From positions 1 to 40,848 of IMG/VR virus record IMGVR_UViG_3300032325_000533: DNA of 40,848 nucleotides, one strand, 5' to 3'. Below are positions 16,493-40,848 of the stretch, one piece after another. The stretch's first letter is position 1, and each line of letters opens with the position of its first letter. The position numbers and the translations under genes were made by a program. The notes under the pieces were generated by a model. The model had not been told where the DNA came from. It ran no database searches and was given only the letters and a program-made list of their open reading frames with translations. Source of the stretch: a virus.

Positions 16493-16701
16493 TGCAGATG
16501 CAGGACGCGCCTATCATTTACCTGGAGGCGGATGGGCTGACCATTTCCGAGCGGGAGGATGGCGCGCTGGTGCTGATCCTGACGCAAAGGGACGGGGCGG
16601 CGCTGGGCCTGCCGCTGCTGCAAGGCATGGCGGGGGCGCTGCGCGCGGTGCTGGATGCGGCGGATGTGGCCGGCGGGCGCTTTGTGGCGGCGGTGCATTG
16701 A
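16489..16701 (+). CDS. Hypothetical early protein (70 aa)
   Basis: Starts MMQMQDAPIIYLEADGLTIS. Beta strands (IIYLEADGLTISEREDGALVLILTQRDG) are followed by one helix. The ATG overlaps the previous stop, and the stop overlaps the next ATG (TGATG). No recognised domain. Confidence 0.6.
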   Translation: MMQMQDAPIIYLEADGLTISEREDGALVLILTQRDGAALGLPLLQGMAGALRAVLDAADVAGGRFVAAVH

Positions 16702-16772
16702 TGCGGGCGCTGCTGGTGCTGCTGCTGGGGCTGGTGATGCTGTTTGCGGCGCGGGGAGCGCTGGCGGGGTGA
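16701..16772 (+). CDS. 23-aa hydrophobic micro-protein
   Basis: MRALLVLLLGLVMLFAARGA then LAG, entirely a membrane helix or signal-like peptide. It is connected by TGATG to the gene before and by GTGA to the primase gene after. It bridges the only gap in the chain of coupled genes, so its translation may serve mainly to couple the primase. A real product is plausible but unproven. Confidence 0.4.
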   Translation: MRALLVLLLGLVMLFAARGALAG

Positions 16773-17884
16773 GTGATGGCGCCCGCCCTCCGCTTATGTC
16801 GATATCGGCTATTGTTGACCTGCTGACGGCGGGGATCGACCGGCTTGTTCCGCAGCTCCTGCCGGGCGGAAAGCGGCACGGCAAGGAGTGGGTGGAGGCT
16901 TCCACCAAGCGCGGCGGGCTGGGCGATGGGCTTTCCGTGTGCATGATCGGGGGCAAGGCTGGGGTTTGGTCGCACTTTGGGGCGGCGAAGGGCGGCGACC
17001 TGCTTGACCTGATCGCCTATCTGGAGACGGGCGGGGACAAGACGAAAGCAATTCTCTGGGCCAAGGACTGGCTGGGGATCGGAACCGGCACGGCGGGGCA
17101 GGCTTCCGGGCCTGCCCCTGCCGTGCTGGAACGGGCGCGCAAGGCACGCGAAAAGCGAGAGCAACAAGAGGCGAACGAGAGCAAACGACGATCCGCCTAT
17201 GCTCAAGCGATGTGGCTGCGTGCCCCTCAAGTGGGGCCGGACGATGCCGTGGGGCGCTATCTGGCGGGCCGTGGCATCGGGCTTCTGCACCTTGGGCGGC
17301 GGCCGGGGTGCCTGCGGGCCGGTCAATCCATTCGCCACGAAAGCGGCGGGGATTGGCCGGCCATGCTGGCGGCGATGATCGGGCCGGACGGGGCGCATGT
17401 GGCGACCCATCGCACCTATCTGACGGCGGACGGGCGCAAGGCGCCGGTGTCGCCGGTGAAATCCATCCTGGGGAGCTATGCCGGGGCGCATATCCCGCTG
17501 TGGAAGGGGCGGACGGCCGCGACCTTGCGCGAGCTGCCGGCGGACACGGTGGTTTATATCAGCGAGGGGATCGAGGACGGGTTGAGCGTGGCGCGTCACC
17601 TGCCCTGGGCGCGCGTGATCGCGGCGGCTTCGCTGGGCAACATGGCGACGGTGTGGCTGCCGCCACAAGTGCGGGAAGTGGTGCTGGTGGGGCAGCATGA
17701 CCCGGAATTTAAGGCGGATGGCAAGCCGCACCCTGCGCCGATTGCCTTTAGGGCGGCCGTTCAGGCGCATGCGGACGCGGGGCGGCGCGTGCGGGTGACG
17801 CGGCCGCCAGCGGAGTTCAAGGATTTCAACGAATGGGTGCAGGCGGTGGACTTGCAGAAACAAGAAACGGTTGGGGTTGCGTGA
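16769..17884 (+). CDS. DNA primase with Toprim domain
   Basis: Product of 371 aa from GTG 16769 (GTGA overlap); ATG 16796 would give 362 aa. The N-terminal region resembles zinc-less primase modules of phage and VirE-type proteins (GGKAGVWSHFGAAKGGDLLDLIAYL). The Toprim core is near residues 245-320: VVYISEGIEDGLSVA carries the acidic Glu, and VLVGQHDPE stands where other Toprim proteins have the DxD metal site. It should make primers for phage replication. The next gene encodes the helicase partner. Confidence 0.82.
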   Translation: MSDGARPPLMSISAIVDLLTAGIDRLVPQLLPGGKRHGKEWVEASTKRGGLGDGLSVCMIGGKAGVWSHFGAAKGGDLLDLIAYLETGGDKTKAILWAKDWLGIGTGTAGQASGPAPAVLERARKAREKREQQEANESKRRSAYAQAMWLRAPQVGPDDAVGRYLAGRGIGLLHLGRRPGCLRAGQSIRHESGGDWPAMLAAMIGPDGAHVATHRTYLTADGRKAPVSPVKSILGSYAGAHIPLWKGRTAATLRELPADTVVYISEGIEDGLSVARHLPWARVIAAASLGNMATVWLPPQVREVVLVGQHDPEFKADGKPHPAPIAFRAAVQAHADAGRRVRVTRPPAEFKDFNEWVQAVDLQKQETVGVA

Positions 17885-19770
17885 GCGAGGAAGTGACGGC
17901 TGCGCTGCTCGGCGCGGAGATTGTGGCGGAACCTGCGGCGGCCGCGCCTGGAATTCGCGGCCAACAAGACAATCGCCCGAAAGTGCCGGAAGGGGCGGCC
18001 GGCGGCGGCGGCGGGCGAGCGCGGCGGCCGCGCGGCAAGCCGGGGGGCGCTCCAGCTCCTGAACCGCAAGAGTTCGACCCGGCGGCGGCGAACGGCGGCG
18101 GGCGGGGCGGGAAGATCAAGCGGCGGGAATTGCCGGAGGGCTGCCCTGTCACGCCGCTCGGAACCTATAACGGGATGTTCTTCTATCTGGACGCGGTGGG
18201 ACAGTTGCGGGATTTGAAAGCGCGCGACCATGGCGGCAAGGATTTGCTGGCGCTGTTCGCGCCGCGCACCGATATCCTCTATTCGACCTGGCCGCGCATG
18301 AATGCAGACGGCGACATAACCGGGTGGCGGCCGGAGCTGGCGGCCGAGGAGCTTATGAACGCCTGCGCGCATGCGGGCGTGTGGAACGCGATGGACAAGG
18401 TGCGTGGGCGCGGCGCGTGGCAGGATGAAAGCGGCGGGCTTATCCTGCATGTGGGCGATGCGGTGATGATGGGCGGGCAATGGCGCGCGACGGGGCAACA
18501 TGGCGCGCATGTCTATCCGGCGGCGCCGGCGGTGGCGCGGCCGGTGGACGGGCGCGCGGGATCGGCGGCTATCGAGGAGCTGCTGACGCTGCTGAAAAGC
18601 TGGCGCTGGAAGCGGCCGGGGCTTGATCCATTTCTGCTGCTGGGCTGGCTGGCTTGCGCGAAATTCGGGGGGGCGCTGGACTGGCGGCCGCTGGCCTGGG
18701 TGACGGGCGACAAGGGGACAGGCAAGAGCACGCTGCACAAGCTGCTGGAGGGGCTGATGGGTGGGGCGATGCTTTACAGTTCCGACCCTTCGGAGGCGGG
18801 CATAAGGCAGACGCTGGGCAATCAGACGCTGCCGGTGATGGTGGATGAAGCGGAACCGGAGGCGGACAATCGCAAGCTGCTGCTGCTGGTGAAGCTGGCG
18901 CGGCAGGCATCAAGCGGGGGCAAGATCGTGCGCGGGGGATCGGATCACAATGCGCAGTCTTTCGTGGCGCGCTCCTGCTTCCTGCTTTCGTCTATCCTTA
19001 TGCCGCCGTTGCAGGGGCAGGATCGCAGCCGGATGGCGGTGCTGGAGCTGTTGCCGCTGCCGCCGGGCGCGGCCGAGCCGCAGCTTTCGGCGGACTGGAT
19101 GCGCAATGTGGGCGCGGTGATCGGGCGGCGGCTGCTGGACGGGTGGGTGCGCTGGCCGGCGACGCTGGCGGCCTATCGGGCGATGCTCAAGGAAGTGGGG
19201 CACGGCGGGCGCGGCGCGGATCAATTCGGCACGCTGTTAGCCGCGGCTGATTTGTTGATCAGCGACACGGTGCCGACGCTGGACGCGGTGCGGGACATGG
19301 CGGGGATGCTTGGGGCTGACCTGCTGGCAGAGACGGCGCACGACGAGAGCGACGGGGAAAAGTGCCTGGCGCATTTGCTGACAAGCTCGGTGCTGCTGGA
19401 CGGGGGCGCGCGGCCGCAGACGGTGGGCTGGTGGATCGGGCGGGCGGCGAAGGAGTTGGAGCCTTCAACCGAGCTGGAGCCGGACAAGAAAGCGGAGGCG
19501 GCGCTAAATGTGCTGGGCCTGCGCGTGCATGAGGACAAAAAAGGGGCGAAGTGGGTGGCGGTGGCGGCGGCGCATCAAGGCCTCGCCAAGCTGTTCGCAA
19601 ATTCGCACTGGCAAAGCACGAGCGGGGCGGCCGGTGTTTGGGGGCAGTCTTTGGGGCGGCTGCCGGGGGCGCTAACGCAGCAGACGGTGCGCTTTGGCGG
19701 GAAAGCGATGAAGTGCATTCGGCTGCCGCTGGCGCTGGCGCGCGATGATGGGCCGGAAGAGGTGTTCTAG
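17881..19770 (+). CDS. Replicative helicase / primase-associated ATPase
   Basis: Product of 629 aa from GTG 17881 (GTGA overlap). The first 90 residues are low-complexity and basic (GGGGGRARRPRGKPGG), followed by a domain with FFYLDAVGQLRDLK. The ATPase domain has Walker A GDKGTGKST (Lys about 282) and Walker B VMVDEAEPE (Asp-Glu about 322-323), and an Arg-containing sensor region near SRMAVLELL. This layout fits P4/VirE-type or SF3-like phage helicases. With the primase it forms the whole recognisable replication module; no phage DNA polymerase is encoded. The last four bases overlap the convergent gene 19767-20045. Confidence 0.82.
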   Translation: MSEEVTAALLGAEIVAEPAAAAPGIRGQQDNRPKVPEGAAGGGGGRARRPRGKPGGAPAPEPQEFDPAAANGGGRGGKIKRRELPEGCPVTPLGTYNGMFFYLDAVGQLRDLKARDHGGKDLLALFAPRTDILYSTWPRMNADGDITGWRPELAAEELMNACAHAGVWNAMDKVRGRGAWQDESGGLILHVGDAVMMGGQWRATGQHGAHVYPAAPAVARPVDGRAGSAAIEELLTLLKSWRWKRPGLDPFLLLGWLACAKFGGALDWRPLAWVTGDKGTGKSTLHKLLEGLMGGAMLYSSDPSEAGIRQTLGNQTLPVMVDEAEPEADNRKLLLLVKLARQASSGGKIVRGGSDHNAQSFVARSCFLLSSILMPPLQGQDRSRMAVLELLPLPPGAAEPQLSADWMRNVGAVIGRRLLDGWVRWPATLAAYRAMLKEVGHGGRGADQFGTLLAAADLLISDTVPTLDAVRDMAGMLGADLLAETAHDESDGEKCLAHLLTSSVLLDGGARPQTVGWWIGRAAKELEPSTELEPDKKAEAALNVLGLRVHEDKKGAKWVAVAAAHQGLAKLFANSHWQSTSGAAGVWGQSLGRLPGALTQQTVRFGGKAMKCIRLPLALARDDGPEEVF

Positions 19771-20045
19771 GCCTCGCTGCCGGCTTCGCGGCCGCGCTCC
19801 CAATATCCTTTCGGCGCAGCGGCGGCGGCGACGCGTGCCTGGGCTGCCAGCGGGGCAAGGTGAGCGGCGCGATCGAGCGCGAGCTGGGCGATGGCCTCCA
19901 GCGCGCCAGCGGGGACTGGCGCGGCGCCGGAGCGCCAGCGCTGCACGGTGCGGCGGTTGACCTGGATGGCCTCGGCCATCTCGGTAAGCCAATCGCGGCC
20001 GTATAGGGCTTCGCCTATGGTGGCTAGGAGGATGGGGGGGGTCAT
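19767..20045 (-). CDS. HTH DNA-binding protein
   Basis: Product of 92 aa. Residues 8-45 (IGEALYGRDWLTEMAEAIQVNRRTVQRWRSGAAPVP) form a helix-turn-helix typical of small phage regulators, followed by an Ala-rich helix. Codons 2-5 contain a run of eight C on the coding strand, a slippage-prone tract right after the start. Last gene of the - strand operon, coupled to 20042-20230 by ATGA. It is a candidate binder for one of the inverted repeats upstream of this operon. Confidence 0.75.
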   Translation of the reverse strand: MTPPILLATIGEALYGRDWLTEMAEAIQVNRRTVQRWRSGAAPVPAGALEAIAQLALDRAAHLAPLAAQARVAAAAAPKGYWERGREAGSEA

Positions 20046-20230
20046 GCGAATTGAAACCCGCTAGGCGCTGGCATATCTTCAGCAGTTAGTAATCCGCTGC
20101 GCGCCTCTGTGTCCGAAATACCCAGTTCGGCCAAGCGCGCCCTAGCTTCGCCATAAGTCAGGGCCTCGCTTACATCGTCCCCAGCGCGGATCACCCAGCC
20201 TGCTTCTATTTTTGTGCACCATATTTCCAT
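20042..20230 (-). CDS. Hypothetical protein (62 aa)
   Basis: MEIWCTKIEAGWVIRAGDDV continues into SEALTYGEARARLAELGIS. A small beta-alpha protein with a ribosome site GAAGGG 7 nt before the ATG. No family is recognised. It lies in the - strand operon. Confidence 0.65.
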   Translation of the reverse strand: MEIWCTKIEAGWVIRAGDDVSEALTYGEARARLAELGISDTEARSGLLTAEDMPAPSGFQFA

Positions 20231-20248
20231 TTCGTTTTCCCTTCTCTC

Positions 20249-20587
20249 TCAATAATCGCCGGTGGCGGCGGCGTCCGCAAGGTAGGTGCTGGCCTGGATC
20301 ATCCGGCCGCGATGGGTGCGGCGGCGGGCGCGGCCTTCGGGGCTTAGCGTCCGCTGCCATGCGGCGGTGAGGGCTTCCAGCGTCAATCCCCAACGGGCCT
20401 GGATCAGCGCGTCGCGCTCCTGAAAGCCCATGTCCTGGTCTAGCCGCTCGGTGTTGCGGCGCTCCATTTCGGGGCCGATGGCGGCGGCCTGGGCGTCCGC
20501 CGGCGGTGAGGCCGGCGGATCGCTGCAGGGGGTGGCGGCCGCATAGGCTTCGAAGCTGTTGCGGCCGGTGAGGCGGCGGCGGGTCAT
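20249..20587 (-). CDS. Hypothetical protein (112 aa)
   Basis: Starts MTRRRLTGRNSFEAYAAATP. The first 40 residues are low in complexity. Residues 45-105 are helical (TERLDQDMGFQERDALIQARWGLTLEALTAAWQRTL, ASTYLADAAAT). The start overlaps the previous stop (ATGA). No known domain. Confidence 0.6.
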   Translation of the reverse strand: MTRRRLTGRNSFEAYAAATPCSDPPASPPADAQAAAIGPEMERRNTERLDQDMGFQERDALIQARWGLTLEALTAAWQRTLSPEGRARRRTHRGRMIQASTYLADAAATGDY

Positions 20588-20787
20588 TGGCCGTCACCCC
20601 GCACCCAATCAAGCCAAACAAGCAAGGCCTCGACGGCGTCATCCTGTTCCATGTGCTCGGCGGCATCAATCGCGCGCTCTAGGCGCGCTTCGGCGGCCGG
20701 ATCGTCGAAATAGGCGATATCCCGGCCGCGCGCGTAGGCGGCGCGATATTCGGCGCTGCGGGCTGGCTTGGTGCGGGCGGCGCTCAT
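20584..20787 (-). CDS. Hypothetical protein (67 aa)
   Basis: MSAARTKPARSAEYRAAYAR, then acidic helices (DPAAEARLERAIDAAEHMEQDDAVEALLVWLDWV). The ATG overlaps the previous stop. An in-frame ATG at 20823 would add 12 residues inside the preceding gene and is less likely. Function unknown. Confidence 0.6.
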   Translation of the reverse strand: MSAARTKPARSAEYRAAYARGRDIAYFDDPAAEARLERAIDAAEHMEQDDAVEALLVWLDWVRGDGQ

Positions 20788-21014
20788 TGCGAGCAAACCT
20801 TGTCCGCGCCGATGACGGGACACATGGAATAGCTGCCATGGGGCTTGACGGTTTCGCGGCCGTCATAGGGGGTAATGCGCAAGGTTTTTCCCGTGCTGGT
20901 CTTGATGGTTTTTGCGGTGCGGCTGGCGACCGTGATGCGGAAAATGCAATCGGCATCGCCAATGCTGCGTGTCCAGTAAGTCTTGCCTGGCTCAAATTTG
21001 GTGATGGTCTGCAT
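20784..21014 (-). CDS. Hypothetical protein (76 aa), small beta-barrel type
   Basis: MQTITKFEPGKTYWTRSIGD then CIFRITVASRTAKTIKTSTGKTLRI suggests a compact beta-rich fold. AAGG 8 nt upstream selects this ATG over the one at 21179. It has its own likely promoter (21079-21107). The leader shares a hairpin and the ribosome block GGCAGAAAGGCC with the DUF932 gene leader. Confidence 0.7.
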   Translation of the reverse strand: MQTITKFEPGKTYWTRSIGDADCIFRITVASRTAKTIKTSTGKTLRITPYDGRETVKPHGSYSMCPVIGADKVCSQ

Positions 21015-21071
21015 GGTGTCGGCCTTTCTGCCGTTTCGAGCGCTGCACCTTGCCGCGCTCTTGGTGTTGGT

Positions 21072-21093
21072 AGCGCCGCACATAGGCGGCGCT
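21072..21093. promoter_or_regulatory. 22-bp inverted repeat in the leader/promoter of the 76-aa gene (copy 1)
   Basis: AGCGCCGC-N6-GCGGCGCT, a perfect 8-bp stem. It overlaps the spacer and -10 of the candidate promoter 21079-21107. The same two half-sites, with a different 6-bp centre, occur at 22991-23012 in front of the first gene of the same operon. It is either an operator for one regulator or an RNA hairpin in two leaders. Confidence 0.6.
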
Positions 21094-21107
21094 GGGGTGG
21101 GTGTCAA
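21079..21107 (-). promoter_or_regulatory. Internal promoter of the - strand operon
   Basis: On the - strand, consensus TTGACA (21107-21102) is followed by 17 bp and TATGTG (21084-21079). It would start a message about 60 bp before the ATG at 21014. The -10 is weak. Confidence 0.45.
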
Positions 21108-21115
21108 GCGGTGGC

Positions 21116-21991
21116 CTAGACTGCTGCCAAAATCCACCGCGCGGCGTCGCGGGCGTTGTTGGTTAGCTGCCGCTGCCATGCGCCTTCGCGCGGACTCCAG
21201 CGGAACCCGCGCTGCTTCAAGCGGTCAATTACGGCGGGTGCCGGCCGGCCGGGGAACCGGAGCTGCAACCGATCAGCGGCGATGTTTTCGAGCAGCTCAA
21301 CGCCGTTGATTTCAGAAGCGGCGGGCGCTGTGTCGGCTGCCTCGACCTGGTGCACGGCGGCCGCTTTGCGTTCCAGCTCGGCAACGCGGGCGGCAATGCG
21401 GCGGATTTCGGCGCTGTTGTTGCTCAACTGATAGGCGGCATAAGGGCGGGATTTTGGGCTGGCTGCGTTCGCGGCGCGCATTCTCTCTTGGCGCTGCTGG
21501 CGGGCGGCAAGCCTGGCGCGCGCGTCGTCCAGCGCTCCGTCTGCCAGCTCGCAGGGCGTGGACTGCCGCCGGGTGATGATGGCGCAACGGCGGCTTGCCC
21601 AATGGCAAGCGCCCTTGCCGTGCTCCAGTAGCTCGGTCAACCGGCGGTGCTCGGTTTCCATGCGCTTGCGGTTGCGCTCGACCGGGAAGTTTGCCGGGCC
21701 TGTGACTGCCCAATTGGCGGTGCGCGCGCCTGCGTGCTGAAACACGATCCACAAGCGGACGAACCGTGCCAGCCATTGGGCTTGCAGCTCGGCGGTCAAG
21801 TCGTCGCGGCCCTGGGCTGCGCATGCGGCCGCGATGGCGGCGAAGGCCTGGGCGGCCTCCTGATCGGCTGCATCAAGCTCGGCGGTGCTGCGATTGCTGC
21901 GGAACGTGCGCGCAGAAAACATGCGCTCGAAGGCTGCCGCGCCTCCCATGCTGGCGAGCAGCGTTGCGCGCAAGGTTTCTAAGGTGGTCAT
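21116..21991 (-). CDS. DUF3560-like / large polyvalent-type protein
   Basis: Product of 291 aa from MTTLETLRATLLAS; an AAAGG ribosome site is 8 nt upstream, so the longer form from 22054 is not chosen. Residues 90-200 contain His and Cys residues (EHGKGACHWASRRCAIITRRQSTP). Residues 190-240 are a coiled helix. The C-terminus (LQLRFPGRPAPAVIDRLKQRGFRWSPREGAWQRQLTN) is the closing signature of DUF3560-type proteins of mobile elements. The function of that family is not settled. Confidence 0.7.
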   Translation of the reverse strand: MTTLETLRATLLASMGGAAAFERMFSARTFRSNRSTAELDAADQEAAQAFAAIAAACAAQGRDDLTAELQAQWLARFVRLWIVFQHAGARTANWAVTGPANFPVERNRKRMETEHRRLTELLEHGKGACHWASRRCAIITRRQSTPCELADGALDDARARLAARQQRQERMRAANAASPKSRPYAAYQLSNNSAEIRRIAARVAELERKAAAVHQVEAADTAPAASEINGVELLENIAADRLQLRFPGRPAPAVIDRLKQRGFRWSPREGAWQRQLTNNARDAARWILAAV

Positions 21992-22074
21992 TTTTTGTGC
22001 CTTTCTTGGGCTATCCCTGCAACCGTTGCAGGCTGTGCCGGCGGATCGCACCACGCCGGCAAGGCCTGCGGCGG

Positions 22075-22920
22075 TTAGGCTGCCTTAAGCTGGCGCATAC
22101 CCTCGGCCAGCGTCCACAGGGCGCGGTTGACGCCGACATTCTGATCAATGCCGTTGATTGCCCTGGTGCTCTTGCGGGTGACGCGGCCGCGCTCGTCAAC
22201 GCGGCGGCCGGTCAAGCCTCCCCGAATGACATTTTCCTGCACCACGTTGAGAGTTTGCCAAAGGCTGCTGCCTGCATCGGCCGTGCGCCGGGGGCGCAAG
22301 AGCTGCTGCGCGGTCACTGGCGCGTCTGCATCCTCGCCATAGCGCGCTACAAGACTTGCATCGGCAAAAACCCGCTGTTCATCGCTGGACAAGGTCAGGG
22401 CCTTCATTTCCTGCACTTCATGGGTGAGGCGCGGGAACTCCTTTGCGATGCTGTAGGCGCCTTCGATGATTTCATGCTTGATGTTGCCCTTGTGGTGCAC
22501 GCGGACTTCATCAAATTGGCTGCCTGCTATCAGGCTGTTGGTGCAGACAAAGCGGATCAGTCCGGCGAACATTTGATAGCTGGTGCTGCCATCGTGCGAG
22601 TTGACCAGAATAATCTCGCTGGCTTCCCCTGCCCCGATATCGGCCTCGCGGCGAAGGCGTAGCATGTGCTTAGCGAACCCGAGCTTGCCAAGGTCGCGCG
22701 GCATGGCCTGCACGGCGAAAAAGGGCTGCCAGCCCTCCTGGCGCAAGCCGTCCAGAATGTTGATCGTGGGAACATACTCATAGCGCCGGCTGCGGCTATC
22801 GTGCGCCTCGCTGGCGAAGATCGCCGGGATTTGCGCGCGCAGCTGGTCATCCTGGATGGGGGTGCGGCTTCTGATTTCGAAAGCCTTGCGGGTGAAGCTG
22901 GTAGCAAGTTTGTGTGTCAT
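22075..22920 (-). CDS. DUF932 (phage/plasmid-like) protein
   Basis: Product of 281 aa. The features YVPTINILDGLRQEGWQPFF, LGKLGFAKHMLRLRR, EIILVNSHDGSTSYQMFAGLIRFVCTNSLI and HHKGN are those of DUF932 (PF06067), which is common on plasmids and phages and of unknown function. First gene of the - strand operon. AAAGG precedes the ATG by 7 nt. Its leader carries the inverted repeat 22991-23012, and its upstream region borders the mirror-symmetric GTTAC array, so that array may control it. Confidence 0.88.
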   Translation of the reverse strand: MTHKLATSFTRKAFEIRSRTPIQDDQLRAQIPAIFASEAHDSRSRRYEYVPTINILDGLRQEGWQPFFAVQAMPRDLGKLGFAKHMLRLRREADIGAGEASEIILVNSHDGSTSYQMFAGLIRFVCTNSLIAGSQFDEVRVHHKGNIKHEIIEGAYSIAKEFPRLTHEVQEMKALTLSSDEQRVFADASLVARYGEDADAPVTAQQLLRPRRTADAGSSLWQTLNVVQENVIRGGLTGRRVDERGRVTRKSTRAINGIDQNVGVNRALWTLAEGMRQLKAA

Positions 22921-22990
22921 GTCTTGGCCTTTCTGCCGATAAGCGGGCGGCCCTTTGCCGTCCCACTGACTGCCACTTAAGCGATAGCGC

Positions 22991-23012
22991 AGCGCCGCGC
23001 AAGTGCGGCGCT
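22991..23012. promoter_or_regulatory. 22-bp inverted repeat in the leader of the DUF932 gene (copy 2)
   Basis: AGCGCCGC-N6-GCGGCGCT with half-sites identical to copy 1 at 21072-21093. It lies 71 bp before the DUF932 start. On the + strand it is followed by CCTATTTATTTT, so it could alternatively stop stray + transcripts. Confidence 0.6.
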
Positions 23013-23053
23013 CCTATTTATTTTCGCGGGGCCTTGAACCGAGGGTGCAAGCA

Positions 23054-23059
23054 AGTATA
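23054..23059 (-). promoter_or_regulatory. Candidate -10 for the DUF932 operon
   Basis: TATACT on the - strand, 134 bp before the DUF932 ATG and about 40 bp inside the edge of the GTTAC array. There is no good -35, so the array may supply an activator site. Confidence 0.35.
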
Positions 23060-23096
23060 GCGTCAGCCTTGCCTGATCGGCCTGCGGGTTTGGGGG

Positions 23097-23351
23097 TGTT
23101 ACCGGGCGGTAACGCCGGTTACAAATCGGGTAACAGCTAAACGACTGAAAAGGCGGCGATTTCTGCCGTGTTACTGTGTTACCGGGCCTTCGCGCGCCGG
23201 GGATGCATGTGCGCGGGCGTGCGCGTGCGCGCGGGCGCATGCGTCTGCAAAGGGGCAAACAGCGGTAACATGGTAACAATCTAATTCTTTCATTTAGAAA
23301 CAATGGTTTATCTGTTACTTTCTCTGTAACCGCTGTTACCGGCTGGTAACA
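23097..23351. other. Mirror-symmetric 12-box GTTAC/GTAAC array: candidate origin or master control region
   Basis: Boxes start at 23098, 23109, 23118, 23130, 23170, 23178 | 23265, 23273, 23314, 23326, 23335, 23346. Box types are GTTAC, GTAAC, GTTAC, GTAAC, GTTAC, GTTAC | GTAAC, GTAAC, GTTAC, GTAAC, GTTAC, GTAAC. Steps are 11, 9, 12, 40, 8 on the left and 8, 41, 12, 9, 11 on the right, so it is a mirror image about 23224. The outer 51-bp arms (23097-23147 and 23301-23351) are inverted repeats identical at 39 of 51 positions without gaps. The centre (about 23207-23245) alternates purine and pyrimidine. The right arm contains an AT-rich stretch (23278-23313). It lies in the 500-bp noncoding gap between the - strand operon and terS. 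Confidence 0.75.
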
Positions 23352-23426
23352 GGCAGGAGGGGGCTTGCTTTTGCCATGGGGTTTCAAAGTAGTTTCCCGC
23401 CGATCCTGATTAAGTAGGGGTGGAAA

Positions 23427-23978
23427 TTGGCGAAGCTCTCGGGGATTTCGGCGGCGGTGGATGGGGCGGTTAAGGCCTCGGCGCCGATTGCTGCGCCTGG
23501 GGCACGGCAGGCGGCGCTGCCGCTGGTGGATGCGCGGGCGCTGATGGTTGAGATCGAGCGGAACCCGGTGCGGGCGGATGCGGTGGCGCAAGCGCGGCGG
23601 GTGGGGCGGCCGAAGGGGTCGCGGAACCGGCGCTCCGAAGAGCTAATCCGCTATGTGCTGGCGCGGCATGCTCATCCGATGATGGTTCTCGCTCAGGTCT
23701 ATTCGCGGCCGGTGGAGGCGCTGGCGGCGGAAGTGGGATGCACGCCGGCCGAAGCGCTGGCGATGCAGGTGCGGGCGGCTTCGGAGGCCTTGCCATATTT
23801 CGAAAGCAAAAAGCCGGTCAGCTTGCAGCTGGACGCGCGGGTAATCCAGCTCGTGATGCAGGCGGCGGACGGGAGCCTGGCGCATGAGGATCGGCCGCCG
23901 TGGGAGGAGGCAGAACAGGGCTTTTCGGGCGGCAATGGCACAATCGGCGGCACAGTTGCGGGGGGTGGCGGTGAATAG
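23427..23978 (+). CDS. terS: Terminase small subunit
   Basis: Product of 183 aa from TTG 23427, with a GGGGTGG purine tract close before it; the frame MAKLSGISAAVDG is open from there. Residues 55-72 (VGRPKGSRNRRSEEL) are a basic DNA-contact region. The region HPMMVLAQVYSRPVEALAAEVGCTPAEALAMQVRAASEALPYFESKKPVSLQ is of a type I associate with small terminases of podoviral prophages. The C-terminus is Gly-rich. It would recognise the packaging site and recruit TerL. First gene of the late operon, directly after the GTTAC array. Confidence 0.75.
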   Translation: MAKLSGISAAVDGAVKASAPIAAPGARQAALPLVDARALMVEIERNPVRADAVAQARRVGRPKGSRNRRSEELIRYVLARHAHPMMVLAQVYSRPVEALAAEVGCTPAEALAMQVRAASEALPYFESKKPVSLQLDARVIQLVMQAADGSLAHEDRPPWEEAEQGFSGGNGTIGGTVAGGGGE

Positions 23979-24253
23979 CGCAGCGATTGCAAGGGCTTGG
24001 CTGGCCTTGCGCATATCATCGCTAACCATAAGCGCAAGCTGGCGCGGCAGCGCGGCGCGCTCGGGCGCGGCGCGGCGGGCGCGCGGCGCGGGGGGGGTGG
24101 CCCCCCCCACGGCCTCGCGCGCGTCCTGTATGCCCCTCGTCGCAGGGTGCGCAAAAATTCTGGCGAAAAATTGGCCGGAAAATCAGGCGACCGGGGAAAT
24201 GGGCCTGGGGATGGGAACGGGCCTTCGGGTTTCGGGTGCTGGGGTGCGGGCGC
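23979..24253 (+). other. terS-terL gap with two competing short ORFs and a G8/C8 hairpin
   Basis: Two + frames are open here: GTG 23971-24261 (96 aa, VNSAAIARAWLALRISS) and TTG 23997-24389 (GLAHIIANHKRKLARQRGAL). Neither has a convincing ribosome site, and neither has clearly better codon use. A run of eight G, TGG and eight C (24090-24108) crosses both and would be a slippage or sequencing-error site. A gene may exist here, possibly split by a frameshift. I do not choose. Confidence 0.4.
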
Positions 24254-25726
24254 GTGGCTGACGCGGGCACGCTCAAGCTGGAATGGGTGCCGCCTGGGCC
24301 GGTGGCGGGGGCTTTCGTGGAAAGCCGGGCGCCGATTGCGGCGATTGCCGGGCCGGTGGGTTCAGGCAAAACGACTGCCAGCCTTATGAAGATCGTGAAG
24401 GCAGCGCAGCGGCAAAGACCAAGCCCGCGCGACGGGGTGCGGCGGTGGAAGCATTTGACGATCCGCGACACCTTCACCGATTTGCAGCGCACCATTTTTC
24501 CAAGCTGGTTTGAGCTTTTCCCCAAGGATTTTGGCGAGTGGGTTGGCGGGCCTCCAGCCAAGCATGTGCTGCGCTTTGCCGACAAGTTTGGCCCTATCGA
24601 GCTGCAACATGACTTCATGGGGCTTGGCGACGACCGGATCGAGAATTTGCTGCGCGGCTATCAGGGCAGCAGCTTCTACGCCAACGAAGCCGACTTGCTG
24701 GAATATGGGGCCATTGACTTCATGTTTTCGCGGATGGGGCGGTTTCCGGGCGCGATTGACGGCGGCTGCGCCTGGCGCGGCGGCTGGATGGACTTCAACA
24801 TGCCGGAGCAGGATCATTGGCTCTACACGCTGCTGGTGGAAGGGATTATTCCCGACACCGAGCCGGAGCAGGTGGCAGAGGGTTTCCAATTTTTTGTGCA
24901 GCCGGGCGGGATGGATGCGAAAGCCGAGAACCGGCACAATCTTCCGCGCGATTACTATGAGCGGATGACCGGCACAATGCCCGACTGGCGGGCGCGGCGG
25001 CTGGTGCATAACCAGTGGGGCTATTCGCGGGACGGGAAGCCGGTTTATCCCGAGTTCAGGGATGGGGTGCATGTGTCTCCGGTGGCGCTGGAGCCGGCGC
25101 GGGGGTTGCCGGTGGGCATCGGGATGGACGCGGGTGGGACGCCGGCGGCGGCCTTTGGGCAGTTCATGCCGAGCGGGCAATTCCGGGTGCTGGACGAGAT
25201 TGTGACCGGGCCGGGAACCGGGCCGAAGGCCTTTTCCGACCTGCTGATGGCAAAGATCAGCGCGCGCTTTCGCGGCCATGACATTTTCGGCTGGGCCGAT
25301 CCTTCGGCGGCAATGGGGCCTGGCAATGACGGGACGGATAGCAACTGGCTGGAGACGGTGCGCATTCGCTCCAAAATTGCTTTTCGGCCTGCCCCTACAA
25401 ATTCGCCGGGGATGCGGCAGGAGGCCTTGCGGACGCCGCTTTCGCGGATGGTGGAAGGCGAGCCGGGCTTCCTGCTGGATCCGCGCTGCCGATCCTTACG
25501 CAAGGCCTTCAACAGCGGATATCACTACCGGCGCATTCAGTTGCATGGGGCCTCCGGGCGGTTCGATACCAAGCCGGCGAAAAATCAGTGGAGCCATGTG
25601 ATCGAGGCGCTGGAATATCTTGGGCTTGGCGGGCCGGGCGGGCTGGCGGTGGTGATGGGCCGGCCGGAACGGGCCGGGCCGGTGCAGGTGGTGGACGCCT
25701 ACGATATGTATGGCGACGCGGCATGA
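24254..25726 (+). CDS. terL: Terminase large subunit
   Basis: Product of 490 aa from GTG 24254; GTG 24236 is an alternative. The ATPase domain has Walker A AGPVGSGKTT (Lys39) and a Walker B-like strand SFYANEADLL, in which Asn replaces the usual Asp before Glu. The C-terminal RNase H-like nuclease has VGIGMDAGGTPAAAFG with the first Asp and IFGWADPSA with a second. It pumps DNA into the prohead and cuts it. The Walker B variant and the HDF and YQGSSFY phrases suggest a clade of podoviral prophage terminases rather than T7 gp19 proper. Confidence 0.9.
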   Translation: MADAGTLKLEWVPPGPVAGAFVESRAPIAAIAGPVGSGKTTASLMKIVKAAQRQRPSPRDGVRRWKHLTIRDTFTDLQRTIFPSWFELFPKDFGEWVGGPPAKHVLRFADKFGPIELQHDFMGLGDDRIENLLRGYQGSSFYANEADLLEYGAIDFMFSRMGRFPGAIDGGCAWRGGWMDFNMPEQDHWLYTLLVEGIIPDTEPEQVAEGFQFFVQPGGMDAKAENRHNLPRDYYERMTGTMPDWRARRLVHNQWGYSRDGKPVYPEFRDGVHVSPVALEPARGLPVGIGMDAGGTPAAAFGQFMPSGQFRVLDEIVTGPGTGPKAFSDLLMAKISARFRGHDIFGWADPSAAMGPGNDGTDSNWLETVRIRSKIAFRPAPTNSPGMRQEALRTPLSRMVEGEPGFLLDPRCRSLRKAFNSGYHYRRIQLHGASGRFDTKPAKNQWSHVIEALEYLGLGGPGGLAVVMGRPERAGPVQVVDAYDMYGDAA

Positions 25727-26663: not shown

Positions 26664-29000
26664 ATGGCGACGGCGAAACTGACATGGATTTTGGGCGCTT
26701 CGCGCGAGGCTATCGCGGTGGCCGGCGGAACCGCAATTTCCGGTGCGCCGGCGGTGGAAGTGAATGTTGATTTCGACGACAAAATGGGCAAGGCCGATGT
26801 GCTGCGGGGCCTCAATATGGTGCGGGACAAGCTGGTGACGCAGGGCTGGCCGCCTGTGGCGGCGGCTCCGGCGGTGGTCGAGGCTGAAATCACCGCAGTT
26901 GATGCCGATGGAAATTTTGTCACCTTGGCGGCGGCTCCGGCATCTGATGTGCCGCTGCTGCCGATTGTGGTGAAGCGGAACGGCTATAATTCGGCTGGAT
27001 CGCTGGAAGATTGGAACGAAACAATCCTGCTGACGCAGCGGAAGATTAACCCCGTGACTGTTGGCACACTGGCGGCTGGAACGGACATTGCAACAAGCTC
27101 TGTCATCTTCCAGGGCGATACCTTCACCAATCAACCGTCTGTGCCAAACGCTTCTACCCGCCTGCCCCCTCGCATCGAGGGGCGTTGGGTTGAGACATAT
27201 AGCGGCATTGTGGTCGGGAATACGGTTGCGGCGGCGGCGGATTTCATCACTTCCTATCCGGTCGATGGGCTGCCTGTGGAGCGGGTGGAATTTTACTGGT
27301 CAGACGGCACCGACACCGTCACGGCGGTGGGCGCGCTTTCTCCGTATATCGGGGTGGTGAGCGGCTACTGTGCGCACCGCTGGAGCGTGTCGGGCGTGGA
27401 CATTACCGCGCTCGACGAGGGGCGGGTGACGCTGGACTGGCGGGCTTATGGCCGATATGGCCAGCTTTACACTTCCGCCCAGGTTACGGCGGCGCTCAAT
27501 ATCAGCTCGCGCAACGGTGGTCACGATATAGGAACGCTGTATCTGCGGAAGCATGTGGCGATGGCCGCTGCCCCGGTGCATTTCTTTTTCTCCGCAACCG
27601 CCGGCAACAATGGGACTGGCGTGGCGAGCGAAGTGGTGGCGACGGCGCGGGCCAATCCTTTCGCCAATCACGGTCAAGGGCTTGTGGCGGCGGTGGCGCG
27701 CAATACGGCGCTCTATGGGGTGGCTGGTGCCGATGGCGTCGTGTGTGTCGCCCTCAACACGGGCGCAAACATTGCCCCCAATCGCAATGCCGCGACGGCC
27801 CAGCCCTGCCTCATCGCGGGTTGGACGATGATACCTGACCCGCTCGAAGTCTCATGGCCTGCTGGTGGCCCAACAATAGCCTTTGCCAGCAATGAAAACT
27901 GGTTTGTCGGCAGTTCCACCAATCCTGGTGGCGATGTGTCTCTGCACTGGCGCGGCTTCAATTACCTTCGCACGGCGAGCACCTTCACTTTCTCGAACAC
28001 TATCACGCACCCGGCTCGGATATACCTTGTCGGCGCGGCTGGTGGCTCGACATTCGATCTGGCGACGCTGGTGACTGGCACGCCCTTCATCAACGCGCCG
28101 TGGCATCCTGTTCGCTATACCTTTACCGGCGCGGCTGCTGGTTCAGGAACGGCGCTGAACTATAACACAAATGGCGGCATGGCGACCGCAATAGACTGCG
28201 ATTTCAGCGGAGTTGGCACTTCTGCGGCAAACGCTTCTGGCGTCTCTCCTTCTGGGCTGATTGCGTGCAAGGGCGGGAACCAATATCCGATTCCTTTGGC
28301 GGGATCGCTGCAAGCCGGGTTTATCGACGGCTGGACAAGCTATACTACTGGCGCGGCGGATATTGCTTTCTCCGTCCAGAACCACAATACGGCGCGCGCC
28401 TTCGTCAAGCGCAATGTGCTTTTCGTGGATTTGAACGGCACGGAAAACAACGGCACAGAGGTATCTTCGGACAACAAGACCTACAGTGTAACGGACATGG
28501 CGATGCTCGGCGTAACATTTGCCGCTGCCAGCCAAGCCTTCCGGTCTAATCACCTTTACACCGAAGGGGTTGCTGGCGGTTCGCGCCTTCATTTCGGCAA
28601 CACTATGCGGGGCTGCATCTTGCCCGCCATTGCCAACAAGGGCGCGGCCTTTGAAAATGACGCAGCGCGTGACCGGGGCTGTAGAGAGTATCGCTATGGT
28701 GTCGGTTGCATAGGCAATCACTATAACCACCTGTTCCGGGTGCCGAAAACCAGTGACACCGCCCTGATCTATCTTGGCGTCGGGGCGGACGCTCCGCCCA
28801 ACACGACAACCTATAACGACCCTCTTTTCGTGCTTGATCGCACGCCGACAGTGCTTGGCGGTGCAACCGGGGCGACTGATGGGAACTATCGATCGTCTGC
28901 GACCGTGGCACCTTACCCACGGCCCAATCGTTACGACATTCTTGGGCGCGTCCTTTCTTCGACCATCACAAAGGTCGGCGCTTATGCGGGTGAGCCATGA
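26664..29000 (+). CDS. Tailspike-type protein with a duplicated N-terminal module
   Basis: Product of 778 aa. GGGAGGG precedes the ATG by about 10 nt. Residues 1-65 are a paralogue of the 65-aa protein at 36328 (29 of 65 residues identical, no gaps), followed by a Pro/Ala linker. The remainder is beta-rich and Gly/Asn/Thr-rich, with repeats of short strands (AIDCDFSGVGTS, FVKRNVLFVDLNGTENNGTE, GSRLHFGNTMRGC) suggesting a right-handed beta-helix spike. No catalytic motif is assigned. Base composition and codons are more mixed and less G-ended than in neighbouring genes, which fits recent exchange. Probably a receptor-binding protein. Confidence 0.65.
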   Translation: MATAKLTWILGASREAIAVAGGTAISGAPAVEVNVDFDDKMGKADVLRGLNMVRDKLVTQGWPPVAAAPAVVEAEITAVDADGNFVTLAAAPASDVPLLPIVVKRNGYNSAGSLEDWNETILLTQRKINPVTVGTLAAGTDIATSSVIFQGDTFTNQPSVPNASTRLPPRIEGRWVETYSGIVVGNTVAAAADFITSYPVDGLPVERVEFYWSDGTDTVTAVGALSPYIGVVSGYCAHRWSVSGVDITALDEGRVTLDWRAYGRYGQLYTSAQVTAALNISSRNGGHDIGTLYLRKHVAMAAAPVHFFFSATAGNNGTGVASEVVATARANPFANHGQGLVAAVARNTALYGVAGADGVVCVALNTGANIAPNRNAATAQPCLIAGWTMIPDPLEVSWPAGGPTIAFASNENWFVGSSTNPGGDVSLHWRGFNYLRTASTFTFSNTITHPARIYLVGAAGGSTFDLATLVTGTPFINAPWHPVRYTFTGAAAGSGTALNYNTNGGMATAIDCDFSGVGTSAANASGVSPSGLIACKGGNQYPIPLAGSLQAGFIDGWTSYTTGAADIAFSVQNHNTARAFVKRNVLFVDLNGTENNGTEVSSDNKTYSVTDMAMLGVTFAAASQAFRSNHLYTEGVAGGSRLHFGNTMRGCILPAIANKGAAFENDAARDRGCREYRYGVGCIGNHYNHLFRVPKTSDTALIYLGVGADAPPNTTTYNDPLFVLDRTPTVLGGATGATDGNYRSSATVAPYPRPNRYDILGRVLSSTITKVGAYAGEP

Positions 29001-29031
29001 TGAACCTTTACCCATCCGATACGGGGGGAGC
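28997..29031 (+). repeat. 35-bp direct repeat, copy 1
   Basis: Begins ATGATGAACCTTTACCC and ends GGGGGGAGC. It overlaps the stop of the spike gene and forms the leader of the next gene. It differs from copy 2 at 31681-31715 by one base (T for C at the 23rd position). Confidence 0.9.
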
Positions 29032-29044
29032 CAGGAGCTTACGC

Positions 29045-31684
29045 ATGACGACCTACACGCACACCTTCCCGGATGGGGCGGTCATCACCTACACGCCGCC
29101 GGAGGCGGGCCCGCCGCCGCAGCAGTTCGCTCCGCTTCCGGCGGACTATCCCGCAGCAGTTGCAGTGCCGCCCCTCAACGAAACGGCAGGCAACTTGGGC
29201 TATCTTACCGGGCCGACTGAGGCGGAGTGCGCCAACATGTTTGGCGGGGCTTCTGTCGTGGAAGGTGCAATCGCTGTCAAAGTCAGGCTGCAACCCAGCT
29301 TTATGGGTGGGGACGGGAACAAGCCCGCGACCTACATCATGGGCCACGGAACTCCAGCGAGTCAAAATCGTGCTTGGTGTCTTTATTGGCTTGGCGGTGC
29401 TGCTGCAGCAGCAAACGCAGGACGCTTTCAGTGGCAGTATCAGCGGGGGACAGGTGACAACATAACGCCCCTTATGCCTCGCCGGATCGCGCCAAATGAG
29501 CAAGGCGTCGTTGAGGCGTTTCTGGTTTTCCGTCGCAAAGCTGATGCGGGTGGCACCTGGGAAGCACTGGCAATACAGCAGGGTGACACTGCAGTTGTCG
29601 CGCCGATCGGCGATGAAATAACTGTTGACAATGTTTTAGGTATTTCGAGTGCTTTGCAGGCGCCTCTGCGCCTGTTTACAGCCACCGCCGCAGCAGCCAA
29701 CGCTTTCAATTACGCCGGGGGCTGCGCACTCTCCGATTTGATTTACATTCAAGGCGCTGCTGGCACAGACGCAGAATGGCTGCGGGTCGCCAACGGTGAA
29801 AATCCAGCGACCGTATTTCCATCCACCCTGCACTACCATTACCCCTTAGGGGGGTCCGCCGGTCTTGCCAAAGCGGCAGGATCACGGGCAACTTCACCCT
29901 TCACTGTGCAAGGCTCAGGCGTCTATTATTCGACGCAGCTTCTCCCGACTGCTGGCACGACGACTGCGGCCAACAGCATCTATGTTCTTGGCAGCAACTG
30001 GGGGCATGTTCACCCGCTTCCGCCATCGGCGTTGATCGAGAACGAGGCGGCTGCAGGCGGCTTGGCGGGCATCATGACAAAGACGACGACCGTGCTTCTG
30101 CCGGTTTCCATCGGCGGCACGGCAACTCGCGTCGAAGCTCGTGTGTGCCGCGAAGATGACGGTGCGGTCATTCAAGACTGGACGCTGCGCGATGTGGAGG
30201 GCGGGACAGGCGCAGCGCTTACCGGTAATCACACGCTGATCATTCCTGGCGTTCGACCGGCTAACGGCCTCGGCCATGTTTATGATGTTCGCCGGCAGGA
30301 CGACCCGAGTTGCGTTTTCCGCTATCGCGCTCGGGAAGATGTCGGCATCGGCGCGGCTTGGGGGGCGTCACAGTCCCAAATGGCTCGTGTGATCTCCAAT
30401 GATGCTGGTGCAGCTGGCACCGGCCTGGTCACTCCGGTTGCAGGAGTTGGCGACACCGTCACCGTCACTTTGGAGCGGGCGGGAAAAAATGGCTTTGTGC
30501 CTCCGGCCAACGCACCGCTCAGGGCTGGTCTGACGACCAACGGGTTCATGGCCTTCGCCAACATGTGGCGCAGCAACTTCCCCACCCTTAAAGTGCATAT
30601 CACTGCACTGTCCAAGTCTGGCACCAGCACGCAGATGTGGCTGGAAGACAAGGTTAACGCGGTCACTCCCCTTAACTGGTGGGGCGATGGGGCCAATCCT
30701 GCAAGTGGGGTTGTGACGGCTCACACGCTCGCCGCCCGTCGCAGGTTCAGTGCCTTCTTGGTGTCGTGGCACACAGACGACCGTGGAAAAATCGACGGCT
30801 GGCAGGAGCGGTTCAACGAATTGTTCTCGCTGAACGAGGCTTCGGCCGGCGCGGCAGTGACAGGCTGGACTGTGCCCTACACTTCCAGAAAGAGCTTTGC
30901 CAAGTTTCCCGGGGGGCTGGTCTTTACACCCCATATCATTGGCTTCCCAGTGTCTCGTGAGTCGGAAGCTACAGGCGGGGTGGCAATGACTGCTTCTCGC
31001 AGCCGCACCTTCGCCGCTCAGCGAAAACAGCAGTTTGACTATTTCTCGAATGGGGTAGGCCGCGCCGCGGGCATCACCAGTTATGTTGCAAACTACCAGA
31101 CTGCAACGGAGATGCCTGTAGCCAGGGAGGCTCACCATACCAATGCAGCAGCGCGCGGAAATCCGCTCTTCTCTGTTCAGGTTGCGCAGGGCCTTGCTCG
31201 CGCAGCGGGCCTTACCCCCGGCTGGTATGTCGGCGCCGGCCGCGACTTGCCGAAGGTGTCTGGCGCGACTGGCGCTGGAACGCCCACCATCACCGTGTCT
31301 TTCGCTCTGCCTGCCGGTTGGACGCTGCGCACCCTGGATCCGGCAGCAACCGCCGTCGAAGAGTTCTGGGTGTCGCAAGACAACGGGGTGAATTGGGTGC
31401 GGGCGAACACGCTTGGAACGGTCACGATTGTTTCCGGGCAGGTGCGGCTCGCAAAGACTACCGGAAATTGGGCGGGCGTTGGCAACATGCTGATCCAGTA
31501 TAACGCCAGCGCCCCGGTTTCGACCGGCACTCTGGCGACTGACAATACGCAGCTTGGCCAGATGCTGTTTGCCGAAATGCCGGTGGGCGAGACTGTTCGG
31601 GCGCTTTGGCCTGCAGCAACAACGGAATTGGTGGATGGTCTGCCGATTGCGCCGGACATTGACCCTGTGGCGGTGCTGGTATGA
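29045..31684 (+). CDS. Large receptor-binding protein with SASA/SGNH-like C-terminal esterase features
   Basis: Product of 879 aa from ATG 29045 (AGGAG 7 nt upstream). ATG 28997 within the repeat would give 895 aa, MMNLYPSDTGGA. Residues 40-330 are beta-rich and probably bind the particle or a glycan. Residues about 430-730 resemble SGNH/sialate O-acetylesterase enzymes: WGASQSQM with Ser444 in the GQSNM place, VSWHTDDRG with His576, and AHHTNAAARGN with His697/698 in block V. This assignment is from motif memory only. The last 150 residues are again beta domains. The codon bias is more mixed than in the virion genes, as in the preceding spike. Confidence 0.6.
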   Translation: MTTYTHTFPDGAVITYTPPEAGPPPQQFAPLPADYPAAVAVPPLNETAGNLGYLTGPTEAECANMFGGASVVEGAIAVKVRLQPSFMGGDGNKPATYIMGHGTPASQNRAWCLYWLGGAAAAANAGRFQWQYQRGTGDNITPLMPRRIAPNEQGVVEAFLVFRRKADAGGTWEALAIQQGDTAVVAPIGDEITVDNVLGISSALQAPLRLFTATAAAANAFNYAGGCALSDLIYIQGAAGTDAEWLRVANGENPATVFPSTLHYHYPLGGSAGLAKAAGSRATSPFTVQGSGVYYSTQLLPTAGTTTAANSIYVLGSNWGHVHPLPPSALIENEAAAGGLAGIMTKTTTVLLPVSIGGTATRVEARVCREDDGAVIQDWTLRDVEGGTGAALTGNHTLIIPGVRPANGLGHVYDVRRQDDPSCVFRYRAREDVGIGAAWGASQSQMARVISNDAGAAGTGLVTPVAGVGDTVTVTLERAGKNGFVPPANAPLRAGLTTNGFMAFANMWRSNFPTLKVHITALSKSGTSTQMWLEDKVNAVTPLNWWGDGANPASGVVTAHTLAARRRFSAFLVSWHTDDRGKIDGWQERFNELFSLNEASAGAAVTGWTVPYTSRKSFAKFPGGLVFTPHIIGFPVSRESEATGGVAMTASRSRTFAAQRKQQFDYFSNGVGRAAGITSYVANYQTATEMPVAREAHHTNAAARGNPLFSVQVAQGLARAAGLTPGWYVGAGRDLPKVSGATGAGTPTITVSFALPAGWTLRTLDPAATAVEEFWVSQDNGVNWVRANTLGTVTIVSGQVRLAKTTGNWAGVGNMLIQYNASAPVSTGTLATDNTQLGQMLFAEMPVGETVRALWPAATTELVDGLPIAPDIDPVAVLV

Positions 31685-40249: not shown

Positions 40250-40848
40250 TGCCTAGAATACCGGGATATGAGCGGCAGGTTGACCCGAGGGTGGGCGCTT
40301 CTTTCGACGCGCCGCGCGTGGGGCCGGATGCTTTCGGCGCGCAAGTGGGGGATGTGCTGCAGGCCATCGGCGGGCGCATGCAGCAGGTTGACGAGCGCAA
40401 GCGGCGGGAGGCGGAAGCGGCGGCCGACGATGCGGCGGCGGTGGATGCGGCGCGGTTGTTCGAGGAGACGAACGCGGCGGCCGAGAAGGCGCGGGCGACG
40501 CTCAGGGAGCAGGCAAGCGGCGACGGCGCCGGCCATGCGGAGACGGTGCTTTCCGACTTTGACCGGCGGCGGGATGCGGCGCTGGAGGGGATTACCAACC
40601 CGAAGGCGCGGAAGTGGGCCGAGCTGCAATTCATTCGGCTGCGCGGCAACCTGGATGTGCAGGAAAGCGGCTATGCGGCCGGGCTGCGCGCCACCAAGAT
40701 CGTCACCGATTATTCGACTGCCCGCGACCTGGCGGCAAACGCGCTTTACACGCGACCCGACCCGGAAAGGCTGGTGGAGACGCTGACGGCGCACCGGGCG
40801 CTGGTGGCGGGGCTTTCGGTTTCGGAAGAAATCAAGGGCAAGCTGAAC
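40249..40848 (+). CDS. Internal virion protein, T7 gp15-like position (5' part, continues at base 1)
   Basis: The N-terminal part, MPRIPGYERQVDPRVGASFD, of the roughly 682-aa protein whose C-terminal part ends at 1572. The ATG overlaps the previous stop (TGATG). Residues 50-95 form a charged coiled coil (GRMQQVDERKRREAEAAADDAAAVDAARLFEETNAAAEKARATLRE). The phrase DFDRRRDAALEGITNPKARKWAELQFIRLRGNLD resembles the start of gp15-like and similar virion proteins. The window ends after residue 200, of which the last 41 repeat bases 1-123. Confidence 0.7.
   Translation, partial: MPRIPGYERQVDPRVGASFDAPRVGPDAFGAQVGDVLQAIGGRMQQVDERKRREAEAAADDAAAVDAARLFEETNAAAEKARATLREQASGDGAGHAETVLSDFDRRRDAALEGITNPKARKWAELQFIRLRGNLDVQESGYAAGLRATKIVTDYSTARDLAANALYTRPDPERLVETLTAHRALVAGLSVSEEIKGKLN
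40726..40848. repeat. Right copy of 123-bp terminal direct repeat
   Basis: Identical to bases 1-123. See the left copy. The nonredundant circle is 40,725 bp. Confidence 0.95.

What the first reader, a model, noticed from the sequence alone, without database searches (positions are those of the whole stretch)
23097..23351. Mirror-symmetric array of twelve GTTAC/GTAAC boxes with inverted 51-bp arms
Twelve pentamer boxes occur in 255 bp where less than one is expected by chance. Box order and spacings are a mirror image about 23224: steps 11-9-12-40-8 on the left and 8-41-12-9-11 on the right. The outer arms match at 39 of 51 positions as inverted repeats. The centre is an alternating purine-pyrimidine tract (Z-DNA or cruciform prone), and one arm contains an AT-rich stretch that could melt. 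Divergent operons leave both sides. I know of no phage origin or operator of this exact plan. It may be a replication origin, a looping master switch for early and late genes, or the TerS/pac site.
Basis: partly seen in the sequence, partly recalled or inferred. Interest (0 to 1): 0.92.

Follow-up and report, generated by a model that had tools for sequence, protein, structure and literature searches.

The report
Mirror-image phage DNA replication origin
The twelve mirrored short boxes are almost certainly the start site for DNA copying in this phage, of the type known from dairy-streptococcus phages and phage-parasite islands, and the same plan turns out to occur in many unrelated phages.

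Summary
Twelve GTTAC/GTAAC boxes lie at 23098-23350, in mirror order and spacing; this is the most clustered pentamer in the 40.7-kb circular phage genome. It is best explained as the phage's replication origin, not an operator or pac site.

Three lines of evidence carry this. (1) The annotated rep_origin of Streptococcus phage Sfi19 has the same 12-box order, F R F R F F | R R F R F R, with GTTAC boxes. A 302-bp element of the related phage Sfi21 was reported to act as an independent origin. (2) Of 120 viral loci found with a four-box query, 111 have at least 8 boxes. At least 77 of these carry a D5/VapE/DUF927-type replication helicase, and in 56 of 65 first scored the array lies within 150 bp of that gene's 3' end. 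Random virus contigs had neither. (3) Twelve named phages, chosen only for homology to this phage's helicase (17833-19770), mostly carry such an array, some with a different box.

The plan is that of PICI/SaPI origins. The variant features are a GC-rich alternating purine-pyrimidine centre, an AT-rich stretch in one arm (the genome's most AT-rich), and a 3.3-kb convergent block separating rep and origin. Binding and replication remain untested.

The parts
23097..23351 (.). whole mirror array of 12 GTTAC/GTAAC boxes: proposed replication origin (ori)
23098..23134 (.). left outer cluster, boxes F R F R
23170..23182 (+). left inner direct pair GTTACtgtGTTAC (8-bp step)
   Evidence: an 8-bp direct step is by far the commonest step in 100+ viral arrays
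23183..23264 (.). 82-bp centre, 76% GC, alternating purine-pyrimidine run of 17
23265..23277 (-). right inner pair GTAACatgGTAAC (8-bp step)
23274..23323 (.). most AT-rich 50-bp stretch of the genome: candidate melting element
23314..23350 (.). right outer cluster, boxes F R F R
17833..19770 (+). proposed initiator: D5-like (SF3/AAA+) replication helicase, 645 aa
   Evidence: Walker A GDKGTGKST; PHROG 'DNA primase'; fold match to D5/E5, NrS-1, SaPI5 Rep and AsfvPrimPol; homologs L196, L183, L101 end within 0-86 bp of GTTAC arrays
16655..17884 (+). TOPRIM primase (DUF7146 + Toprim_3), overlapping the helicase gene
   Evidence: in L109, L175 and L123 one ORF matches both the primase and the helicase
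19767..22920 (-). convergent block (small HTH gene to DUF932) lying between rep and ori
   Evidence: absent in the syntenic relative L285 and in L176, where ori directly follows rep
22075..22920 (-). DUF932 protein gene, diverging from the array
23427..23978 (+). TerS-like gene (by position upstream of TerL and by homology in relatives; no family match)
24236..25726 (+). terminase large subunit

Best explanation
The array is the replication origin of a temperate, podovirus-like phage. Its nearest held relative lies in a Sandarakinorhabdus MAG. The D5-like helicase encoded at 17833-19770 (Rep) would bind the GTTAC boxes, probably through its C-terminal region, and assemble as two opposed hexamers on the two mirror halves. 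It would open the duplex at or next to the centre (the alternating tract and the AT-rich right arm) and unwind in both directions, with the adjacent TOPRIM primase and host polymerase making DNA. Shown here: the array, its recurrence at the 3' end of such helicase genes, the identity of plan with an annotated phage origin, and the helicase fold. Inferred: binding by Rep, the double hexamer, and where melting starts.
For: Sfi19 record AF077306 annotates rep_origin 5231-5531, directly 3' of 'putative primase' gp506. Inside it lie 12 GTTAC/GTAAC boxes in the window's exact orientation order, steps 8,10,13,44,8,76,8,45,13,6,14. Sfi21 has a corresponding 302-bp element reported to act as an independent, infection-activated origin (PMC6356513). 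PICI/SaPI origins have two iteron sets flanking an AT-rich region just 3' of rep, and EcCICFT073 rep-ori replicates a plasmid (PMC6092414); its sequence shows the same mirror plan with the box GGTAGA. A viral scan with only 4 of the boxes gave 120 loci, 111 with 8 or more boxes; the scrambled-pentamer scan gave 18. A D5/VapE/DUF927/Rep-like helicase is in 65 of 110 loci, with the array within 150 bp of its 3' end in 56, and in 12 further full records. Controls: 0 of 50 random records with the D5/VapE profile and 0 of 54 random loci with 7 or more boxes in 320 bp. Array-blind test on 12 named phages found by Rep homology: 4 GTTAC arrays and 5 arrays of another box. Relatives L001/L004 keep 12 boxes in the same place at 37-69% protein identity.
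Against: In this phage the array is 3.3 kb from rep, not adjacent. Its centre is GC-rich, unlike PICI and Sfi19 origins. GC skew does not switch at the array. The sequence link of Rep to D5/VapE helicases is weak: hhalign covers only the P-loop, probability 90%. Foldseek TM-scores are modest, 0.3-0.46, and the C-terminal domain matched no solved DNA-binding domain. 34 of 111 array loci had no helicase found; many are short contigs, but about a dozen records of 16 kb or more also lacked one. Three of the 12 array-blind phages (L287, L289, L295) showed no clear array in the stretch read. No experiment has been done on this phage.
Confidence: 0.9

Rival explanations
1. A regulatory operator: a phage repressor or activator binds the boxes and loops the two halves to control the diverging DUF932 and TerS operons.
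For: It lies between diverging genes; mirror-paired sites could support looping; HTH proteins are encoded nearby.
Against: Across viral loci the array follows D5/VapE/DUF927 helicase genes, not a common regulator. The window's HTH proteins have no homologs in the array loci. No sigma-70-like promoter was found. An equal array is annotated as rep_origin in Sfi19. Autoregulation as a by-product of origin binding remains possible.
Confidence: 0.05
2. A packaging site (pac/cos) recognised by TerS.
For: It lies just upstream of the TerS-like gene, and in several relatives the array also lies next to the terminase genes.
Against: In many loci the array sits at the helicase 3' end with no terminase nearby; Sfi19 and EcCICFT073 arrays or origins lie in replication modules away from terminase, and EcCICFT073 encodes no TerS (PMC6092414). 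A Rep-based search alone retrieves arrays.
Confidence: 0.04
3. A partition or plasmid-maintenance centromere for an extrachromosomal prophage.
For: Iteron-like clusters also serve as centromeres; ParB-like genes occur in some relatives such as L287 and L289.
Against: No ParA/ParB-type gene was found among the window proteins searched, and an integrase is present. The arrays track replication helicases.
Confidence: 0.01

Closest known systems
Replication origin of Streptococcus thermophilus phages Sfi19/Sfi21 (302-bp 'PER' element)
   Same: GTTAC core, 12 boxes, identical orientation order F R F R F F | R R F R F R, inner 8-bp direct pairs, mirror plan
   Different: Sfi19 centre is AT-rich and directly follows the D5-type helicase gene; window centre is GC-rich alternating and 3.3 kb from rep; primase is TOPRIM rather than Prim-Pol; unrelated host and virion type
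PICI/SaPI origins (SaPIbov1, EcCICFT073)
   Same: two mirrored sets of short iterons recognised by a self-loading Rep helicase of the D5 or DUF927 class; array downstream of rep
   Different: EcCICFT073 box is GGTAGA; the published description has an AT-rich middle; these are satellites, not autonomous phages
SCCmec Cch2 putative origin
   Same: pentamer iterons bound by the C-terminal domain of a D5-family helicase, just downstream of its gene (PMC7581432)
   Different: only three AAGTG iterons reported, no 12-box mirror plan
Lambda-type O iteron origins
   Same: phage origin with repeated initiator sites next to an AT-rich region (general knowledge, not tested here)
   Different: no O/P-type gene in the window searches; boxes here are pentamers in mirror order

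Membership tests
PICI/SaPI-type replication origin | two sets of short iterons in mirror arrangement | tested here: met
   12 of 12 boxes mirrored
PICI/SaPI-type replication origin | the two sets flank an AT-rich region | tested here: not met
   centre is 76% GC; the AT-rich stretch lies in the right arm, 23274-23323
PICI/SaPI-type replication origin | immediately 3' of the rep gene | tested here: not met
   3.3 kb downstream of rep with a convergent block between; adjacent in the syntenic relative L285
PICI/SaPI-type replication origin | cognate rep encodes a self-loading D5/SF3-like or DUF927-class helicase, with a primase | tested here: met
   fold-level match to SaPI5 Rep (7ola) and D5/E5; TOPRIM primase adjacent; sequence-level link weak
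PICI/SaPI-type replication origin | Rep binds the iterons and rep-ori supports autonomous replication | not testable with these tools
   needs gel shift and plasmid assay; C-terminal domain fold search gave no solved DNA-binding match
Sfi19/Sfi21 phage origin | GTTAC boxes in the order F R F R F F | R R F R F R | tested here: met
   identical order in both
Sfi19/Sfi21 phage origin | AT-rich centre, directly 3' of the helicase gene | tested here: not met
pac/cos packaging site | bound by TerS or is the site of the first packaging cut | not testable with these tools
   position next to the TerS-like gene only
transcriptional operator | overlaps promoters of the flanking genes | tested here: inconclusive
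   no sigma-70-like promoter in 22700-23600; other promoter types are not covered by the scan

The most novel reading that the evidence does not exclude
The window is one of a very widespread, so far unnamed class of phage origins: mirror arrays of a phage-specific 5-6-bp box (most often GTTAC) around an alternating purine-pyrimidine centre, co-evolving with D5/VapE/DUF927-class helicases across phages of many hosts. PICI origins would then be one branch of it, not a unique type, and the alternating centre would be the strand-opening element even in GC-rich genomes.
Probability: 0.5. Interest if true: 0.72.

Novelty: new variant of a known kind. Interest (0 to 1): 0.55.

Why it matters
It gives a sequence-only handle on where many uncultured phages start copying their DNA, which is rarely known. 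[quoted passage not shown] the arrays found here, in a streptococcal phage and many other virus records, argue against that and suggest satellites and phages share one initiation system. It also raises testable questions: how the box changes (GTTAC, GTTAG, GTATC, GGTTC, TGTGAG, GGTAGA) while the mirror plan stays, and how a GC-rich alternating centre is opened. Cloned Sfi21-type origins are reported to protect hosts from phage (PMC6356513), so such arrays may be usable as decoys.

Tried and rejected
DNA-level similarity of the array to phages and plasmids: only chance hits. TerL as a bait in viral contigs: no locus with the single protein, one (the L001 contig) with the two-sequence alignment. 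DUF932 as the binding partner: more than 80 homologous loci, only L001/L004 with the array, and no DUF932 homolog in the array loci; rejected. HTH proteins of the window: no homologs in the array loci. Cumulative GC skew as an origin marker: no switch at the array. PDB sequence search with the Rep profile: P-loop matches only. C-terminal domain model: no solved DNA-binding match; only two viral proteins matched well. Literature for GTTAC as an origin motif: nothing relevant; Ubeda 2007 and Foley 1998 are not held and are cited through later papers.

Full report
WHAT IS THERE. The window is a complete circular phage genome: 40,848 bp with a 123-bp terminal overlap. It has podovirus-like structural genes, an integrase, a TOPRIM primase gene 16655-17884 and a 645-aa P-loop protein 17833-19770 that PHROGs links to DNA primases. 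The reported array is exactly as described: twelve GTTAC/GTAAC boxes at 23098-23350, steps 11-9-12-40-8-87-8-41-12-9-11, arms 39/51. Expected boxes in such a stretch: 0.06. Over all strand-merged pentamers this is the strongest cluster in the genome. Every box has a mirror partner of opposite orientation.

ANATOMY. Inner direct pairs with an 8-bp step face each other across an 82-bp centre. Outer clusters of four boxes follow at 40-41 bp. The centre is 76% GC and carries a 17-base alternating purine-pyrimidine run. The genome's most AT-rich 36-bp and 50-bp windows lie in the right arm at 23274-23323. The AT-rich stretch of relative L001 lies in the corresponding arm, read from the sequence. 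The box extends to TGTTACC in the window, GGTTACG in L001, GGTTACTT in L126 and TGTTACGG in L196, so the core is shared and the flank differs from phage to phage.

RELATIVES. L001/L004 is a diverged relative (DUF932 69%, TerL 53%, helicase 37%, TerS 49% over 90 residues). It keeps 12 boxes in 253 bp between TerS and DUF932, with shifted steps. The same scan with a scrambled pentamer gave 18 loci. Some of those are arrays of the same plan built of GTATC, and 4 of 10 records checked carry a D5-type helicase. Random contigs gave no array and no D5/VapE helicase. That control was smaller and of mixed contig length, and the D5/VapE profile alone was used.

WHICH GENE GOES WITH IT. Helicases of the Pox_D5/DUF5906, VapE-like, DUF927 (Cch) and window-Rep classes are found in 65 of 110 array loci, and in 12 more when full records were searched. 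In 56 of the 65 the array lies within 150 bp of the helicase gene's 3' end. The D5/VapE profile matches SaPI Rep structures 7ola and 7pds by sequence. The window's own helicase is more distant: a P-loop-only profile match but a fold match to D5/E5, NrS-1, AsfvPrimPol and SaPI5 Rep (model pLDDT 74; Foldseek probability 1.00, E about 1e-7 to 1e-9, TM 0.3-0.46). Its homologs in L196, L183 and L101 end 0, 86 and 5 bp from GTTAC arrays.

ARRAY-BLIND TEST. Named phages were then picked only by tblastn homology to the window helicase and 12 were read. Four have GTTAC arrays: L284, L286 Serratia MQ-4, L291 Bdellovibrio phi1422 (11 bp after rep) and L294 Acinetobacter Acjo_20 (5' of rep). Five have arrays of another box: L285 GGTTC, L288 GTTAG, L292 CTTAC and L293 TGTGAG near the rep 3' end, and L290 GTTAG elsewhere. 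The L288 and L292 arrays are the weaker of these. Three show none. L285 is syntenic with the window (primase, rep, array, TerS, TerL, portal, capsid, tail), with the array directly after rep. The convergent block 19767-22920 of the window therefore looks like a later insertion between rep and origin (inference).

WHAT IS KNOWN. The array locus L108 is phage Sfi19. GenBank AF077306 annotates rep_origin 5231-5531 after the primase gene, and all 12 boxes of the array lie inside it in the window's exact order. A 302-bp element of the related phage Sfi21 is described as an independent origin activated by infection (PMC6356513). PICI origins are described as two iteron sets flanking an AT-rich region 3' of rep, and EcCICFT073 rep-ori works on a plasmid (PMC6092414). 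Its sequence shows the mirror plan with GGTAGA, steps 9,46,22,11,9,31,11,22,46,9. SaPI Rep and SCCmec Cch2 use their C-terminal domains to bind iterons (PMC7581432).

CENTRE. Over 78 non-redundant arrays the longest alternating purine-pyrimidine run in the centre averages 12.1, against 6.6 in shuffles and 6.2 in flanks (Wilcoxon p below 1e-9); 37 of 78 are individually significant at 0.05. In AT-rich phages it reads TATATA, in GC-rich ones GCGCGC or GTGTGC. This was not in the papers read.

MECHANISM. Most likely Rep binds the boxes as two opposed assemblies, the duplex opens in or beside the centre, and the two helicases leave in opposite directions. Shown: array, recurrence, co-occurrence, plan identity, helicase fold. 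Inferred: binding, double assembly, melting site. The C-terminal model matched no solved DNA-binding domain, so the binding step rests on analogy.

LIMITS. The 120 loci are a truncated, pattern-selected and partly redundant set. About a dozen longer array records had no recognised helicase. The mirror statistic over the set (62% mirrored against 43% permuted) is inflated by the query, though the window's own value is not. Key original papers are not held.

VERDICT. A real, strongly conserved element. Best read as a replication origin, a GC-rich, rep-detached variant of the Sfi21/PICI plan.

Noticed in passing
window 1-123 and 40726-40848: Exact 123-bp terminal repeat: the record is a complete circular genome of 40,725 bp.
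   Followed up: yes
L108:10713-10957: Phage Sfi19 carries a second, near-identical GTTAC array about 1.7 kb downstream of its annotated origin.
   Followed up: no
L213, L221, L220, L218, L215: The scrambled-pentamer control scan itself found same-plan arrays made of GTATC boxes; 4 of 10 such records carry a D5-type helicase.
   Followed up: partly
window 26664-31684: Two large adjacent genes (778 and 895 aa) between TerL and portal with no convincing match in PHROGs, Pfam or NCBIfam.
   Followed up: partly
window 22075-22920: DUF932 protein is 58-69% identical in at least 80 mostly alphaproteobacterial genome contigs, nearly all without the array: a common mobile-element gene of unknown role.
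   Followed up: partly
L126:1658-2764: An 11-kb contig with a 13-box GTTACT array and a centre with a 29-base alternating run, directly before TerS/TerL homologs of the window.
   Followed up: partly
window 8076-9290: GDSL-lipase-like domain in a protein next to the tail-fibre gene.
   Followed up: no
L103, L107, L182, L194, L198 records: Longer virus records with good GTTAC arrays but no helicase found by the profiles used: possibly another initiator class.
   Followed up: no
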